A DNA stretch of 64,000 nt. It comes from Flavobacterium sp. SUN052. Its GTDB lineage: Bacteria; Bacteroidota; Bacteroidia; Flavobacteriales; Flavobacteriaceae. The translations under genes and the position numbers were made by a program. Each line of letters begins with the position of its first letter. Position 1 is the first letter of the stretch. Of the stretch, positions 58,787-64,000 are shown piece by piece. The notes beneath the pieces are model-generated. The model searched no databases. It saw nothing but the letters and a program-made list of their open reading frames with translations, and was not told where the DNA came from. The stretch is taken from contig NZ_JAPQNS010000004.1 in the NCBI RefSeq assembly GCF_028867935.1, positions 390,080 to 454,079 of the forward strand. The letters are read 5' to 3'.

Positions 58787-59956
58787 TCACTCAATCACCC
58801 GAAATAACCGGCTCCAGCGGATTTTGTGCCACACGTCAGCAGGAACAGGGTCAAGTGACATCCAGACAAACACCGCTTTACCAACAATGTGGTCTTCGGG
58901 TACAAAGCCCCAATAGCGTGAATCTTCGGAGTTGTGGCGGTTGTCGCCCATCATAAAGTAGTAGTCTTGCTTGAAGGTATAACTCGTGATCGGCTTCCCG
59001 TCGATTTGAACACTGGTGGGGGTTAACACTACGTTTTTGTTGTCTTCATACCGCTCGATAACCGGCCCATACACGGCAATCGTCTGCGGATTCAGACTAA
59101 CCGTAACGCCTTTTTTGGGAATTGTCAGTGGGCCATAATTGTCCTGATTCCAGGTGTGTGCTGATCCACCGTAAATGCCGGGTCCAGCTTGAGCGGGCGG
59201 TTCGGCAATGGGTTCAATGCCCTTAACCCAATCGAACGCCTTGAATTTTTGCAGGGTTTCCTGCATCATATTCACCCGGTAACCGGATAGGGTAGAGGTT
59301 TTGGTAACCTCATCATACGTCTCCACCGACTGCCAGTTAATGAATGGACCTTCGGCCGATTTGAAATCGTTGACAATATCGTATCGCCGGAAAAACCGGT
59401 CGTCGAGCACCTCAGTGGTTTTTACATAATAAAACGTTTCGGAGCGGGGCGGCACGGGGAACGCCTTGCCGTTTACGAAGACTTTTTCCTGCCGGATTTC
59501 CAGCACATCGCCGGGAATGCCAATGCACCGCTTAATGAAATTGGTTTTCAGATCGGTGGGGTAAGCTGGTTCGCCCTCTTTTTTGGGCGGATAATTAAAC
59601 ACAACGACATCGCCGTTTTTCACCTTCGTGAAACCAGGAAGCCGGTAAATAGGCAGTTGTATCACCGAGCTGAAAGAGGGGATTTCGGTGCCCCAGATTT
59701 TCTGGTGCGTCAGCGGTACTTGCAGGGGCGTTTTTGGGGTACGAATGCCGTAGTGAAGTTTGCTCACGAATAGAAAATCACCCACCATCAGGCTGTTTTC
59801 CATCGAAGGCGTCGGAATGGCGTAGGCTTCAAACGTGAAAAACCGAATCAGTGTGGCGGCTATCACCGCGAACAAAACCGAATCGAACCACTCCCGTATG
59901 GGTGACTTTTTAGGCTGGGCTGGCTTTCCAGAAGCCGTTTCTTTCTTATTGATCAT
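58787..59956 (-). CDS. lepB: Signal peptidase I
   Basis: The 389-residue protease is the long form found in Bacteroidota. One N-terminal membrane helix (about 25-45) leads into the catalytic Ser motif AIPTPSMENSLMVGDFLFV. The Lys motif is TNFIKRCIGIPGDVLEI, and the C-terminal box is MGDNRHNSEDSRYWGFVPE. About 130 extra residues lie between the Lys motif and the last box. It removes signal peptides from exported proteins. A 12-bp inverted repeat with a 42-nt loop ends 3 nt before its start codon. Confidence 0.95.
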   Translation of the reverse strand: MINKKETASGKPAQPKKSPIREWFDSVLFAVIAATLIRFFTFEAYAIPTPSMENSLMVGDFLFVSKLHYGIRTPKTPLQVPLTHQKIWGTEIPSFSSVIQLPIYRLPGFTKVKNGDVVVFNYPPKKEGEPAYPTDLKTNFIKRCIGIPGDVLEIRQEKVFVNGKAFPVPPRSETFYYVKTTEVLDDRFFRRYDIVNDFKSAEGPFINWQSVETYDEVTKTSTLSGYRVNMMQETLQKFKAFDWVKGIEPIAEPPAQAGPGIYGGSAHTWNQDNYGPLTIPKKGVTVSLNPQTIAVYGPVIERYEDNKNVVLTPTSVQIDGKPITSYTFKQDYYFMMGDNRHNSEDSRYWGFVPEDHIVGKAVFVWMSLDPVPADVWHKIRWSRLFRVIE

Positions 59957-60087: not shown

Positions 60088-60651
60088 TCAGGGAGCCGAT
60101 TGTTTTCTTACGTAAGGGTTGAAAACGTATTTTGATTTTACAGAAATCACCTCAGCAACTTTGGCGAATACAAGTTGAGGGACTTCAATTTTATGATCAG
60201 TTAGCTTTACGTCGAAGTTGTTTGATAACGTAATTTTCTGATTATCAACAGTAAGGTTTCCTTTTAATTCTCGTGACTGTGATACACCATGAATTGTCAG
60301 TTGGCCCTTTGCTGTAACAGCGTACGTTCCATTCTTTGTGTAGTCAATCGGTTCAAGAATTTTTCCTTTGAAGACACTGGTGGGGTACTTTTCCGATTCA
60401 ACATAATTTTCATTGAAGTGCTCCTGCATCAGTTTATTTGAGAAATCAAAGGCCATCATTTTTATACCCACCGCTATTTCATTCGTGGCCGTATTCAGCA
60501 CGGCTCCTACTGATTTATTAATAGCTGAAATGTTTTCAACGGGCGTTTCTGAAAAGAAACTGGTTTCTCCCGTTTGGGTAGAGAAAAGTTGCCCGTAAGA
60601 AGGTATTGATAGTATGCTGTACACCATCAATAAGAAGCTGAATTTTTTCAT
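60088..60651 (-). CDS. YceI family lipocalin-like protein
   Basis: The 187-residue protein has a signal peptide (MKKFSFLLMVYSILSIPSYG). The YceI fold is an extended beta-barrel lipocalin that holds isoprenoids such as quinone tails. Its typical segments are QTGETSFFSETPVENISAIN and GQLTIHGVSQSRELKGNLTV. It is the last gene of a four-gene minus-strand cluster with a DUF5777 beta-barrel protein, a Rieske protein and a heme-binding lipoprotein. A quinone-related role in that chain is inferred from the company it keeps. Confidence 0.85.
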   Translation of the reverse strand: MKKFSFLLMVYSILSIPSYGQLFSTQTGETSFFSETPVENISAINKSVGAVLNTATNEIAVGIKMMAFDFSNKLMQEHFNENYVESEKYPTSVFKGKILEPIDYTKNGTYAVTAKGQLTIHGVSQSRELKGNLTVDNQKITLSNNFDVKLTDHKIEVPQLVFAKVAEVISVKSKYVFNPYVRKQSAP

Positions 60652-60683
60652 GATAAAACTGTTTTAGTAAAGCAATGATCTTT

Positions 60684-61592
60684 CTACTGTTGTGGTTTTT
60701 TGGACTTTTTATCCAGGCTAAAACTTCTGGACATATTGAAGCCATAGAAAATGCCCCCATCGCTCCAGAGCTTTGTTGTTTGAGCAATAAACTGCCGTTC
60801 TATCATTCCCCTGGAATTTGTAAAGTGAAGTTGAAAAACATGGCCGCCTGTTTCAATGTCAAAGCCTAGTGCTAAAGAATTATGATAGGGACTGGCGCCA
60901 GACCGATTGAAATTGCTGTAATAGTATTCACCTGTGATACTAAGCCGTTTTGTTATTTTTACCCGGCCTCCAACTCCTAAAGAGACAAAATCGTTAGATA
61001 CATCAGGTGTTTCAGATTTGTTGAAATGAAGCACCGTAGGCATGAGTTGGAGAGAAATATTTTCACTGAATTTTCTGGCCAGTAAGAATTGCCCTGTGTA
61101 AGTCATGCGGTCATAATTATTATCATAATGCATAACCGTTCCTGATTCCATAGCTGTCCCCGTTATTACAGTACTTATAGCATTGCTGCCATAAACTGTA
61201 AGCGTTACAGGCATTCTATTCGATTGACGTAAAAGTTTATATTTTGCGTAAAAATCGTACACTTTTTCCTGAGAACTTCGACCAATACCAACCGTTAATT
61301 TATCAGTAATTCCATACTCTAAACCAAGACGAATACGAGCTTCATCGAGGCCGAAAAAATTATTGATGAATCCAGAGTTTAGCGCGCCAAACCGATGAGA
61401 AATCCAAAAATTCAACTGGTTTTTACCAACTGTTTCGATGGTTTGACCGTTGATTAACCGCGTACTTTTGAACGTAGCTGATTTGTAATCGATTTTACTC
61501 TTACTTTCCTCATTAAGGATATTCATTAGGTCATCCTGAGCAATTGCTGGCACTGACAGGGCGACTAATAAAAAAACTAAAAAATGCCTCAT
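60684..61592 (-). CDS. DUF5777-type outer-membrane beta-barrel protein
   Basis: The 302-residue protein has a signal peptide (to about residue 18, PAIAQ). The rest shows alternating amphipathic strands with aromatic residues, as in outer-membrane barrels (NFWISHRFGALNSGFINNFF, ITGEYYYSNFNRSGASPYHN, HVFQLHFTNSRGMIERQFIA). I match it to the DUF5777 family from these segments. Such genes commonly stand beside YceI and cytochrome or Rieske genes in this phylum. Function is unknown; it could be a pore or a scaffold for electron carriers. Codon use here is more AT-rich than in the central part of the window. Confidence 0.7.
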   Translation of the reverse strand: MRHFLVFLLVALSVPAIAQDDLMNILNEESKSKIDYKSATFKSTRLINGQTIETVGKNQLNFWISHRFGALNSGFINNFFGLDEARIRLGLEYGITDKLTVGIGRSSQEKVYDFYAKYKLLRQSNRMPVTLTVYGSNAISTVITGTAMESGTVMHYDNNYDRMTYTGQFLLARKFSENISLQLMPTVLHFNKSETPDVSNDFVSLGVGGRVKITKRLSITGEYYYSNFNRSGASPYHNSLALGFDIETGGHVFQLHFTNSRGMIERQFIAQTTKLWSDGGIFYGFNMSRSFSLDKKSKKPQQ

Positions 61593-61609
61593 AATATAGG
61601 TCAGATGGT

Positions 61610-62059
61610 TTATCGGGTAATGGTCAGAACATTACCACTTTGTGTGACTTTATAGGTTGTTAATGGCCTTGATGCTACAGAAAGGGCTTTTCCTGCGTTA
61701 TCAAACGTAGCTCCGTGAGCTGAACACATAAACTTGTTGGTAGCATATGAAATCTGCTTTTGCCCTTCGTGCGTGCATACAAGCGTTACGGCTACATAGC
61801 CATTGTCACTTGTATTTGCAATGACAATTCCATTGGTAGCATCGACAAAAAAGCCTCCTTTATTCATCAATTTGGCTAAATCTGGTTTACTCATGTCGTA
61901 GGTCAAAGGACCCGTAGTTGCCGGAGTAAGGTCGCCTTCGTTTGTACAAGAAGACATAGTAATACCGCAGTAAACCGCTATTAAACTTGCTCCAGAGAAG
62001 CCAATTCTTTTTAGGAAATTAAGCCGATTTATTTTTGCTGTCTGATCTTCTGTATTCAT
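61610..62059 (-). CDS. Rieske [2Fe-2S] protein, membrane- or lipid-anchored
   Basis: The 149-residue protein has one hydrophobic N-terminal segment (about 20-36) followed by SSC-TN, a possible lipobox at Cys38. The Rieske cluster ligands are Cys95 and His97 (VCTHEG) and Cys112 and His115 (MCSAHGATF). It lacks the disulfide cysteines of the high-potential bc1-type Rieske proteins, so a lower potential is expected. It lies 17 bp upstream of the beta-barrel gene and 8 bp after the heme lipoprotein gene, in one transcript. Confidence 0.88.
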   Translation of the reverse strand: MNTEDQTAKINRLNFLKRIGFSGASLIAVYCGITMSSCTNEGDLTPATTGPLTYDMSKPDLAKLMNKGGFFVDATNGIVIANTSDNGYVAVTLVCTHEGQKQISYATNKFMCSAHGATFDNAGKALSVASRPLTTYKVTQSGNVLTITR

Positions 62060-62067
62060 AGCCTGTT

Positions 62068-63426
62068 TTAGTTTGTTTTGTTTTTGAACTTTAGTACTAA
62101 ATCGGTATGAATGGCGTGCTGATTATTTGACTGATTCCAAACAGCGAACCCAAATTGTTGATCACTGAAATTCGAAAAGTCAATGTCCTGTTTTAGTACA
62201 TCTTTTGTTTTTAGCGCTCGTTTAAATTCAACCACCCAACCTGAGCCCGTATGTACAGCTTTGCAGGTAATATCAGCTCTACCATCAATCAAGGGTGAAG
62301 CTATATAACTTGGGATTGCTTTATTGCCTAAATTTCCCGTAACCGATTCGCCAACTCGCTGATAATCGGCATTATTTGTTGGATCGATACTGCCACCATT
62401 GTAGGATAAAATTCCCGTTGAACTTACTTTGGTAATTTTCACAGCTTTATTGGCCAATGTATCGGAGGCAAGAATAAAATAGCTACCAGTTGCATTGGGT
62501 ATAACCCACATTGGAACGGTTACAGATGTACCGGTACCATCTAATTTTAATGTTTGCCGATTGTTAATTGTACCCTGGGGTTTTGCAGTAGAATAGATAG
62601 GTCTGTTAGGCCAAACTGTTGATGTACCAGTGACGGCGATGTCATCCACATGCCGTCCGTTGGCATTACCTCCAGTGAGGTTTGTGATTGCAGGCCCTCC
62701 CGCCCAATCCTGGTAATTATCATCCATTTGGTCGAAAATTATGTCTCGACCTAAATGCCCCCACCACATATCTATTTTTTCATTTACACCATTGGTATAA
62801 TGATTACCACTGTTTGCATTAGATCGCTGCACAGCAGGCGTAACCGAATAGTCTAGATAGGGCGTAAAAACATGGCAGCTTGCATAGCAGGTTTGCGACA
62901 AAAACTTGGGTGTCGAATTATCAATATTCCACAACATTGCTATTTTGTCTTCGCCAAAACCAGGCCTTACCATGACCCCATTTTCATCAAATGTTTTACT
63001 GGTTGATTCCTGAGCCCACAATTTCGTAGTTGGATTAAAATACCAGGGTGCTACGTTTACACTTTTGCTATCATCCGCATATTCGGCTAAAAAATAAATG
63101 GATTCACCGTCATGCATTGACCGTAGGGTGACCGGTATTTTATCATTTATGTATCCCGAAAAAAGATTGTTACCTGGATCAGGTACTGAGGGGTTAATTT
63201 TTAAGGCAGGAACGCTATTCCAGGAAGCGTCAATAATTCCGTCGATTGTTGGGGCCGATCCTGTTTTGATGGAGATAAGCTCTGTTGTGGACGCTTGGTC
63301 CTGTTCGCTCGCTGGAGCAACACTCTGAGTTTTATATTCACACCCTACGTCGTAAATGAGGATGAGTGCGAATGATAAAATAATACATAGAAAGCGTAAG
63401 TTGATTAGCTTCATAATTGATGGCAT
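62068..63426 (-). CDS. Ethylbenzene-dehydrogenase-like heme-binding lipoprotein
   Basis: The 452-residue protein starts with a lipoprotein signal ending in DVGC (Cys near residue 29). The body resembles the ethylbenzene dehydrogenase gamma-like heme-binding domain, with ISIKTGSAPTIDGIIDASWN near residue 50 and FAVWNQSNNQHAIHTDLVLK at the end. An unusual heme c-like motif CYASCH (Cys180, Cys184, His185; three residues between the cysteines instead of two) lies in the middle. It should be anchored in the envelope and carry one or two hemes. It is the first gene of the redox cluster. The family call rests on overall pattern and neighbours. Confidence 0.7.
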   Translation of the reverse strand: MPSIMKLINLRFLCIILSFALILIYDVGCEYKTQSVAPASEQDQASTTELISIKTGSAPTIDGIIDASWNSVPALKINPSVPDPGNNLFSGYINDKIPVTLRSMHDGESIYFLAEYADDSKSVNVAPWYFNPTTKLWAQESTSKTFDENGVMVRPGFGEDKIAMLWNIDNSTPKFLSQTCYASCHVFTPYLDYSVTPAVQRSNANSGNHYTNGVNEKIDMWWGHLGRDIIFDQMDDNYQDWAGGPAITNLTGGNANGRHVDDIAVTGTSTVWPNRPIYSTAKPQGTINNRQTLKLDGTGTSVTVPMWVIPNATGSYFILASDTLANKAVKITKVSSTGILSYNGGSIDPTNNADYQRVGESVTGNLGNKAIPSYIASPLIDGRADITCKAVHTGSGWVVEFKRALKTKDVLKQDIDFSNFSDQQFGFAVWNQSNNQHAIHTDLVLKFKNKTN

Positions 63427-63544: not shown

Positions 63545-63913
63545 CTAATTATATAAAATCGCCGAATGGGGCAGCTATTTCATGCAGATTAGGTTTTATA
63601 CGGTGGAAACTGAACTGATAAATCGATTTCAATAGCACTACGGATTAATAGTCTATCAGGTTGCGTGAATAAGTAAAATTGTTGAGTAAACAGATGCGCG
63701 ATAATCTGTAGTATACGCGCTGTATACATAATAGTACAACTTTTAAATGGCAAAATATGCCTTTAGAGAGCTTTGTAATATATTGATTATCAGTAATAAA
63801 TATAAAGGTAAGTTTATTTTGTACGAGTATGTTTTCTATAAAAGTTAGTGTTTAATACTTAAGTATTTTGTTTTGGTCTAGTGCTTCTCCAATTTAGTAC
63901 GTAGATAAATGGT

Positions 63914-63921
63914 TAACTTTG
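63914..63921 (+). promoter_or_regulatory. -7 element immediately before the partial transposase gene
   Basis: TAACTTTG matches TAnnTTTG and ends 4 nt before the ATG at 63926. As with the cysteine desulfurase, the mRNA would be leaderless or the true start would lie further downstream. Confidence 0.4.
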
Positions 63922-63925
63922 CGGT

Positions 63926-64000
63926 ATGAGCCGTATCGCAACCCCGTTCGTCTTGGCAGAGCCCGATTGGATTACCTTAAAACACCTGGTCAGTACAGGT
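63926..64000 (+). CDS. Partial gene, probable IS630-family transposase N-terminus
   Basis: Twenty-five codons are visible before the window ends (MSRIATPFVLAEPDWITLKH then LVSTG). The pattern of a short basic start, Pro-Phe-Val-Leu, an acidic turn and then a helix ending LVSTG resembles the start of IS630-type transposases, where the helix-turn-helix follows. The terminal inverted repeat cannot be placed from one end. If the call is right, the AT-rich redox cluster borders an insertion sequence. Confidence 0.45.
   Translation, partial: MSRIATPFVLAEPDWITLKHLVSTG

What the first reader, a model, noticed from the sequence alone, without database searches (positions are those of the whole stretch)
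60088..63426. Four-gene envelope redox module: heme lipoprotein, Rieske protein, beta-barrel, YceI
These genes are in one direction with gaps of 8, 17 and 32 bp. All four products are exported: a heme-binding lipoprotein, a lipid- or membrane-anchored Rieske protein, an outer-membrane barrel and a quinone-tail-binding lipocalin. Together they could form a path for electrons between periplasm and outer membrane, analogous to porin-cytochrome conduits but with different parts. I know of no described system of this exact make-up. The cluster is more AT-rich than the window average and borders a probable IS630 element, so it may be acquired.
Basis: inference. Interest (0 to 1): 0.7.

Follow-up and report, generated by a model that had tools for sequence, protein, structure and literature searches.

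The report
Acquired outer-membrane redox gene cluster
Four neighbouring bacterial genes appear to encode two lipid-anchored electron carriers, a narrow outer-membrane barrel and a lipid-binding protein; they look like one mosaic, probably acquired copy of a widespread and apparently undescribed gene neighbourhood in which the carrier can be a heme, an iron-sulphur or a copper protein.

Summary
In detail: four same-strand genes, gaps 8, 17 and 32 bp, encoding an EB_dh-family heme lipoprotein, a Rieske lipoprotein, a DUF5777 barrel and a YceI protein. The cluster is AT-rich (39.9% against 50.2% GC), lies at a multicopy-element contig end, and DUF5777 rang in 0 of 36 Spirosoma-like genomes: probably acquired. 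The exact quartet is rare (this genome, an IS-split copy in Fibrella, three contigs inferred from lengths), but its parts recur. In 97 scored DUF5777 loci, 96 have YceI and/or an exported electron carrier within three genes; that carrier is a c-type cytochrome, a Rieske protein or a plastocyanin. The heme gene elsewhere goes with another DUF5777 clade, a cytochrome c and a DsrOP/NrfCD-like quinone module, so the window operon is a mosaic. The predicted barrel has 12 strands, in my judgement too narrow to sheathe a cytochrome, so the porin-cytochrome analogy is weak. Best reading: an outer-membrane redox module coupling a swappable one-electron carrier to YceI and DUF5777; substrate and direction unknown. 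No paper naming DUF5777 was found.

The parts
62068..63426 (-). EB_dh-fold (EbdC/NxrC-like) predicted c-type heme lipoprotein, 452 aa
62872..62889 (-). CYASCH: CX3CH heme-attachment-like motif, residues 180-185
   Evidence: CXnCH motif in 119 of 120 listed homologues; C180, C184, H185 invariant in 39 of 39
63340..63342 (-). Lipobox-like cysteine Cys29 of the heme protein
   Evidence: invariant in 39 of 39 aligned
61610..62059 (-). Rieske [2Fe-2S] protein, 149 aa, signal-like N-terminus with candidate lipoprotein Cys38
   Evidence: Pfam PF00355 1.4e-07; b6f-type Rieske 5cxm 3e-07
61715..61777 (-). Rieske ligands C95-T-H97 ... C112-S-A-H115, without the extra disulphide cysteines
   Evidence: sequence; 92 of 93 relatives keep CxH..Cx(2-7)H, 3 of 93 have the extra Cys pair
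60684..61592 (-). DUF5777 outer-membrane barrel, 302 aa, 12 predicted strands
60088..60651 (-). YceI-family protein, 187 aa
   Evidence: Pfam PF04264 8.1e-13
63878..64000 (+). End of a multicopy element at the contig end
   Evidence: 100% identical 122-123 bp at the ends of contigs C21, C12 and C2

Best explanation
The four genes form one operon for an outer-membrane-facing redox module. Shown: the gene order, families, ligand motifs and the neighbourhood pattern. Inferred: the Rieske protein and the EbdC/NxrC-fold heme protein are lipid-anchored one-electron carriers in the periplasm or at the outer membrane; YceI holds an isoprenoid (quinone-like) or lipid substrate; the 12-strand DUF5777 barrel sits in the outer membrane as anchor or as a narrow channel for a small molecule. 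Electrons pass from the periplasmic respiratory chain through the carrier to (or from) the YceI-bound molecule at the outer membrane. The carrier slot is chemically interchangeable: heme c, Rieske or plastocyanin. The window copy is a mosaic, probably acquired: a heme gene that normally belongs with DUF5777 clade I (with cytochrome c and an NrfCD quinone module) joined to an Arcicella-like clade II triad Rieske-DUF5777-YceI. The direction of flow and the substrate are not known.
For: Families. Phylum-wide linkage: 96 of 97 scored DUF5777 loci have YceI and/or a carrier within three genes; YceI 78, cytochrome 71, Rieske 9, cupredoxin 4; the distant-ORF control is far lower. Same order 'carrier > YceI > DUF5777' with cyt132 in 34, cupredoxin in 3 and Rieske in 2 of 97 loci. 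The four cupredoxins pass Pfam PF00127's cut-off. All 77 cyt132-labelled proteins in same-strand runs carry CXnCH. Heme gene: 73 of 74 non-edge loci have DUF5777 within the next three genes; of 61 with room, NrfC-like in 57, NrfD-like in 56, cytochrome c in 57. Mosaic: the window DUF5777 sits inside clade II with Rieske triads; 8 of 80 heme loci carry a clade-II-style YceI-DUF5777 pair directly before the heme gene, a possible bridge. Acquisition.
Against: No experiment. Heme binding by CX3CH and its second ligand are inferred; the motif region has moderate pLDDT (blocks of 75 and 67). YceI ligand untested. 11 of 71 loci with same-strand YceI show none of the three carrier families. The carriers are not strictly exclusive: 2 of those 71 loci hold two kinds, and 4 of 20 fetched Rieske loci (L251, L257, L258, L259) have a cytochrome after the Rieske-DUF5777-YceI triad. 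The window cluster has no local electron source; its genome's only NrfD lies before cytochrome oxidase genes, as in alternative complex III.
Confidence: 0.45

Rival explanations
1. Extracellular electron conduit: electrons cross the outer membrane through the DUF5777 barrel to a surface heme lipoprotein, as in porin-cytochrome systems.
For: In heme-gene relatives a chain of NrfD-like, NrfC-like, cytochrome c, small cytochrome, barrel and heme lipoprotein is encoded (NrfC 57, NrfD 56, cytochrome c 57 of 61 loci). The heme lipoprotein often starts C-T-K-x-D-Q (C-x-K-x-[DE] in 43 of 79), which resembles the Bacteroidetes surface-export signal (PMC5080379, passages). One cupredoxin partner has a T9SS tail (L132).
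Against: The predicted barrel has 12 strands and its best matches are small-molecule or peptide channels; I judge that too narrow for a folded heme or Rieske domain. The strict signal C-x-K-[DE]2 occurs in only 6 of 79 (a crude count that took some wrong cysteines) and not in the window protein (CEYKTQ). No multiheme protein in the cluster.
Confidence: 0.18
2. An antioxidant system like BcnA/LcoA: YceI carries a reduced quinone that quenches lipid peroxyl radicals, and the Rieske or heme carrier re-reduces it.
For: BcnA, a secreted lipocalin linked to cytochrome b561 LcoA, limits membrane lipid peroxidation (PMC9113575, abstract; that it is YceI-type is recalled). In 5 Spirosoma-like family loci (L252-L256), and natively in this genome, Rieske and YceI flank an apparently four-helix, His-rich membrane protein instead of DUF5777. 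ECF sigma factor genes lie within six same-strand genes of DUF5777 in 20 of 97 loci.
Against: The four-helix protein has no Pfam match over cut-off, b561 included (L252; L268, where DUF4079 is below cut-off). The idea does not explain the outer-membrane barrel or the link of clade I to NrfCD.
Confidence: 0.22
3. Outer-membrane assembly or trafficking role: YceI and DUF5777 move a lipid or polyprenyl compound, and the redox proteins only modify that compound.
For: The barrel resembles 12-strand channels (KdgM, NanC, FapF, COG4313), and YceI is a lipid-binding family (recalled; family match).
Against: Carriers of three cofactor types in one slot point to electron supply as the constant function.
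Confidence: 0.1
4. A chance assembly of unrelated exported genes in an acquired island.
For: The exact quartet is rare: heme gene in 2 of 200 family genomes; the heme-Rieske pair is seen elsewhere only in Fibrella (1 of 74 non-edge heme loci) and, by inference, on three contigs.
Against: Rieske-DUF5777 and DUF5777-YceI recur far above the distant-ORF control, the heme gene is next to a DUF5777 gene in 73 of 74 loci, and heme, Rieske and DUF5777 relatives share three longest-contig lengths.
Confidence: 0.05

Closest known systems
EbdC / NxrC (heme subunits of ethylbenzene dehydrogenase and Kuenenia nitrite oxidoreductase)
   Different: Lipoprotein, 452 residues against 214 and 292 in the solved chains, CX3CH c-type-like motif, no molybdenum subunit among the 7 proteins scanned; NxrC's Lys305 (PMC8387239, passages) aligns opposite Thr441 by my reading
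Porin-cytochrome conduits (MtrCAB and the like; recalled)
   Same: Barrel plus exported electron carriers
   Different: 12-strand barrel and single-heme or iron-sulphur carriers instead of a wide barrel around a multiheme cytochrome
BcnA/LcoA lipid-peroxyl detoxification (PMC9113575, abstract)
   Same: Lipocalin-type periplasmic protein linked to a redox protein
   Different: No cytochrome b561 seen in the window cluster; adds a barrel and Rieske/heme lipoproteins
DsrMKJOP / Qrc / NrfCD quinone modules
   Same: Downstream genes of one heme-gene relative (Emticicia) best match DsrO, DsrP, QrcC and QrcD
   Different: Below NCBIfam cut-offs and linked to DUF5777 and EB_dh; absent from the window cluster
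Archaeal CbsA-SoxL (EB_dh-type cytochrome with Rieske; recalled)
   Same: EB_dh and Rieske genes together (recalled); PF09459 rings in the S. acidocaldarius and Haloferax volcanii controls
   Different: No cytochrome b partner here, different envelope; the archaeal gene order was not checked

Membership tests
EB_dh domain family (PF09459) | Profile match over the curated cut-off | tested here: met
   79.2 bits against 33.3
DMSO reductase type II heme b subunit (TIGR03477) | NCBIfam cut-off | tested here: not met
   18.4 bits against 169.85
DMSO reductase type II heme b subunit (TIGR03477) | Met/Lys heme b ligation | tested here: inconclusive
   profile alignment puts NxrC Lys305 opposite Thr441; the Met region is not aligned
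Rieske [2Fe-2S] domain | Two Cys and two His ligands | tested here: met
   C95xH97..C112xxH115 in sequence; 92 of 93 relatives keep CxH..Cx(2-7)H
bc1/b6f Rieske subunit | NCBIfam cut-offs | tested here: not met
   15.0-22.4 bits, cut-offs 97.4-275
bc1/b6f Rieske subunit | Second cysteine pair (disulphide; recalled) | tested here: not met
   CTHEGQ..CSAHG in the window; pair in 3 of 93 relatives
DUF5777 (PF19089) | Profile match | tested here: met
   302.6 bits against 23.1
YceI (PF04264) | Profile match | tested here: met
   49.4 bits against 23.7
YceI (PF04264) | Binds an isoprenoid or quinone | not testable with these tools
   needs a binding assay
Porin-cytochrome conduit | Wide barrel enclosing the electron carrier | tested here: not met
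   12 strands in a model with pLDDT 91.1; that this is too narrow is my judgement
Porin-cytochrome conduit | Multiheme c-type cytochrome | tested here: not met
   one CXnCH motif in the heme protein, none in the other three (sequence)
BcnA/LcoA system | Linked cytochrome b561 gene | tested here: not met
   none among the 7 proteins of 57.4-63.4 kb scanned; upstream of 64000 cannot be read

The most novel reading that the evidence does not exclude
Carrier-YceI-DUF5777 is an undescribed class of outer-membrane redox machine across the phylum, with a cofactor-agnostic carrier slot (heme c, [2Fe-2S] or blue copper), and its clade I form is a complete respiratory branch from the inner-membrane quinone pool to an outer-membrane heme lipoprotein; genomes such as this one build new versions by mixing parts of both clades.
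Probability: 0.35. Interest if true: 0.85.

Novelty: new variant of a known kind. Interest (0 to 1): 0.6.

Why it matters
DUF5777 rang in 153 of 395 sampled genomes of the phylum, yet no paper in the held open-licence library names it. Finding three chemically different electron carriers in one gene slot is good comparative evidence that YceI and this barrel work with electrons, and it makes the function testable: replace one carrier by another, or remove it. If clade I is a quinone-to-outer-membrane chain, many Bacteroidota have a respiratory or protective branch for which I found no assay.

Tried and rejected
Porin-cytochrome analogue: weakened by the 12-strand model. Type II molybdenum enzyme subunit: far below the family cut-off. 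Own NrfCD partner for the window cluster: the only NrfD match in this genome lies before cytochrome c oxidase genes, as in alternative complex III, so it gives no dedicated partner. Surface-export signal: suggestive only (43 of 79 loose, 6 of 79 strict). Promoter pattern upstream of the heme gene: my simple pattern printed nothing. A 'cupredoxin' search (count 10) used a wrong seed (a T9SS-tailed, DOMON-like protein) and was discarded; the count of 4 rests. 'Anti-sigma' is my label: of two such proteins scanned, one matched only a barrel domain and one nothing. The large first search of relatives (43 of 60 genomes) was centred on the wrongly labelled genus and was not used for conclusions. Paper searches that gave nothing I could use; some searches gave listings, of which only PMC9113575 (abstract) and PMC8387239 (passages) were opened; PMC5080379 (passages) came. 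Rows dropped: 6 of 80 heme loci at contig edges; 3 of 100 DUF5777 loci (L148, L168, L193) that my ORF caller missed, later found to have YceI and cyt132 nearby. The 100 fetched loci were picked by me from a score-ordered, truncated list, so they are not a random sample; the 80 heme loci are the best 80 of 104 found with two peptide patterns; the family labels come from profiles I built from those loci. The tree used the scored DUF5777 loci, 16 of 80 heme loci and 10 of 20 Rieske loci, with a length filter.
Full report
What is there. Four complete minus-strand ORFs lie at 62068-63426, 61610-62059, 60684-61592 and 60088-60651, separated by 8, 17 and 32 bp. Pfam places them, over cut-off, in EB_dh, Rieske, DUF5777 and YceI. 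The next gene downstream is signal peptidase I (58787-59956). The window ends where its contig ends, so nothing upstream of 64000 can be read.

Which genome. The search tool labels genomes of about 2-6 Mb as 'same genus', but the neighbouring signal peptidase is 70-80% identical to three genomes of genus g59 and 41-56% over the aligned parts to three genomes of the labelled genus. The 36 held g59 genomes are 4.9-10.3 Mb. I treat the host as Spirosoma-like; that name is my inference.

Acquired. The cluster has 39.9% GC against 50.2% for the rest of the window, and 0 of 568 windows of equal length are as low. DUF5777 rings in 0 of 36 genomes of g59 (the tool warns that nothing rang there at all, but the same query rings in G000 and in Fibrella). 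The heme protein is found in 2 of 200 sampled genomes of that family: Fibrella (G427) and one whose place fits the Emticicia locus L034. The last 123 bases of the contig recur at three other contig ends. Acquisition is inferred from these together.

How common is the quartet. Fibrella has heme and Rieske followed by the start of a DUF5777 gene and a transposase (L033), and elsewhere on the same contig the same transposase followed by a 5'-truncated DUF5777 and YceI (L129): the quartet existed and was split. Three further cases are inferred only because the heme, Rieske and DUF5777 relatives have longest contigs of identical length, 14543, 4549 and 3252; their YceI was not checked. Of 20 Rieske loci that I chose, 13 have Rieske-DUF5777-YceI in a row, 5 have Rieske, another protein and YceI, 2 have Rieske and DUF5777 without YceI in view; none shows the heme gene. 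So the triad is common in that family and the quartet is rare.

Its usual company. In 80 named-genome loci (best 80 of 104), 74 are not at a contig edge; within the next three same-strand genes 73 of these have DUF5777, 69 the small CXnCH lipoprotein, 53 the cytochrome c, 1 a Rieske (Fibrella) and 0 a YceI. Of 61 with over 6.5 kb downstream, 57 have an NrfC-like, 56 an NrfD-like, 57 a cytochrome c, 53 a further membrane-protein gene and 35 a small gene. For the Emticicia representative the best NCBIfam models are DsrO, DsrP, QrcC and QrcD, below the cut-offs (Pfam). This reads as a quinone-to-outer-membrane electron chain (inference). In 8 of the 80 loci (L086, L096, L097, L099, L104, L105, L108, L110) a YceI-DUF5777 pair stands directly before the heme gene, so both kinds of cluster can lie side by side.

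DUF5777 company. PF19089 rings in 153 of 395 phylum genomes. I fetched 100 loci from that truncated list; 97 could be scored. Within three genes: YceI 78, cytochrome 71, other CXnCH 12, Rieske 9, NrfCD 6, EB_dh 5, cupredoxin 4; YceI and/or a carrier in 96. The control, ORFs four or more genes away in the same loci, gives YceI 5, cyt132 5, Rieske 0 of 442 against 80, 79 and 9 of 578 near ones. The order 'carrier > YceI > DUF5777' occurs with cyt132 (34), cupredoxin (3) and Rieske (2); of the 71 loci with same-strand YceI, 48 have cyt132 only, 7 Rieske only, 3 cupredoxin only, 2 two kinds, 11 none of these. The four cupredoxins pass the plastocyanin/azurin cut-off. This interchange is the main new result. 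It is not strict exclusion: 4 of the 20 Rieske loci (L251, L257, L258, L259) also have a cytochrome after the triad.

Mosaic. A tree of 132 DUF5777 proteins (midpoint root) puts 98, including the window and all 82 with YceI beside them, in one clade (support 0.825), and 33 of heme/NrfC context plus 1 other outside it; the window sits with Rieske-DUF5777-YceI triads. Two of those triads' contigs (G525, G560) match in length contigs named Arcicella. So a heme gene that elsewhere goes with clade I has been joined to a clade II triad.

Barrel. The model (pLDDT 91.1) has 12 strands; nearest structures are FapF, KdgM, NanC and a COG4313 channel. A shared fold shows no function, but a barrel of this size is in my judgement too narrow for a folded carrier, unlike porin-cytochrome barrels (recalled).

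Regulation and parallels. An ECF-sigma-like gene lies within six same-strand genes of DUF5777 in 20 of 97 loci (the seed passes Pfam's cut-offs). An Rrf2 regulator stands before the triad in L240; proteins with nearly the same start are seen in L241 and L248. The host also has a native run of Lipoprotein_15 protein, ECF sigma factor, Rieske, two apparently four-helix proteins and YceI (L268); five other family loci show Rieske, the four-helix protein and YceI. This resembles BcnA/LcoA, a lipocalin with cytochrome b561 that limits lipid peroxidation (PMC9113575, abstract), but no b561 Pfam match was found.

Conclusion. Observation confirmed; 'exported redox module, probably acquired' supported; 'porin-cytochrome-like conduit' not supported as such. 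Commitment: an outer-membrane redox module in which a swappable one-electron carrier serves YceI and DUF5777 (0.45), with detoxification (0.22) and true extracellular transfer (0.18) as main rivals.

Noticed in passing
whole genome G000: The kinship label of the search tool does not fit the window: its signal peptidase is 70-80% identical to Spirosoma-like genomes but 41-56% over aligned parts to genomes called 'same genus'.
   Followed up: partly
L268 (G000 contig C34): Native run of Lipoprotein_15 protein, ECF sigma factor, Rieske, two apparently four-helix His-rich proteins (the one scanned has no Pfam match over cut-off) and YceI.
   Followed up: partly
L033 8007-10754 and L129 4134-6369: Fibrella DUF5777 gene cut by an insertion element; the two parts of the cluster lie far apart on one contig beside copies of the same transposase.
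   Followed up: yes
DUF5777 loci, e.g. L120, L124, L132: A small OB-fold-like protein (tRNA_anti-like, PF12869 in L120) is encoded within six same-strand genes of DUF5777 in 27 of 97 loci.
   Followed up: no
L101: A Bacteroidota-type heme locus in a record titled Comamonas sp. MAG, probably a binning error.
   Followed up: no
G000 contigs C33 and C12: Two signal peptidase I paralogues, 63% identical.
   Followed up: no
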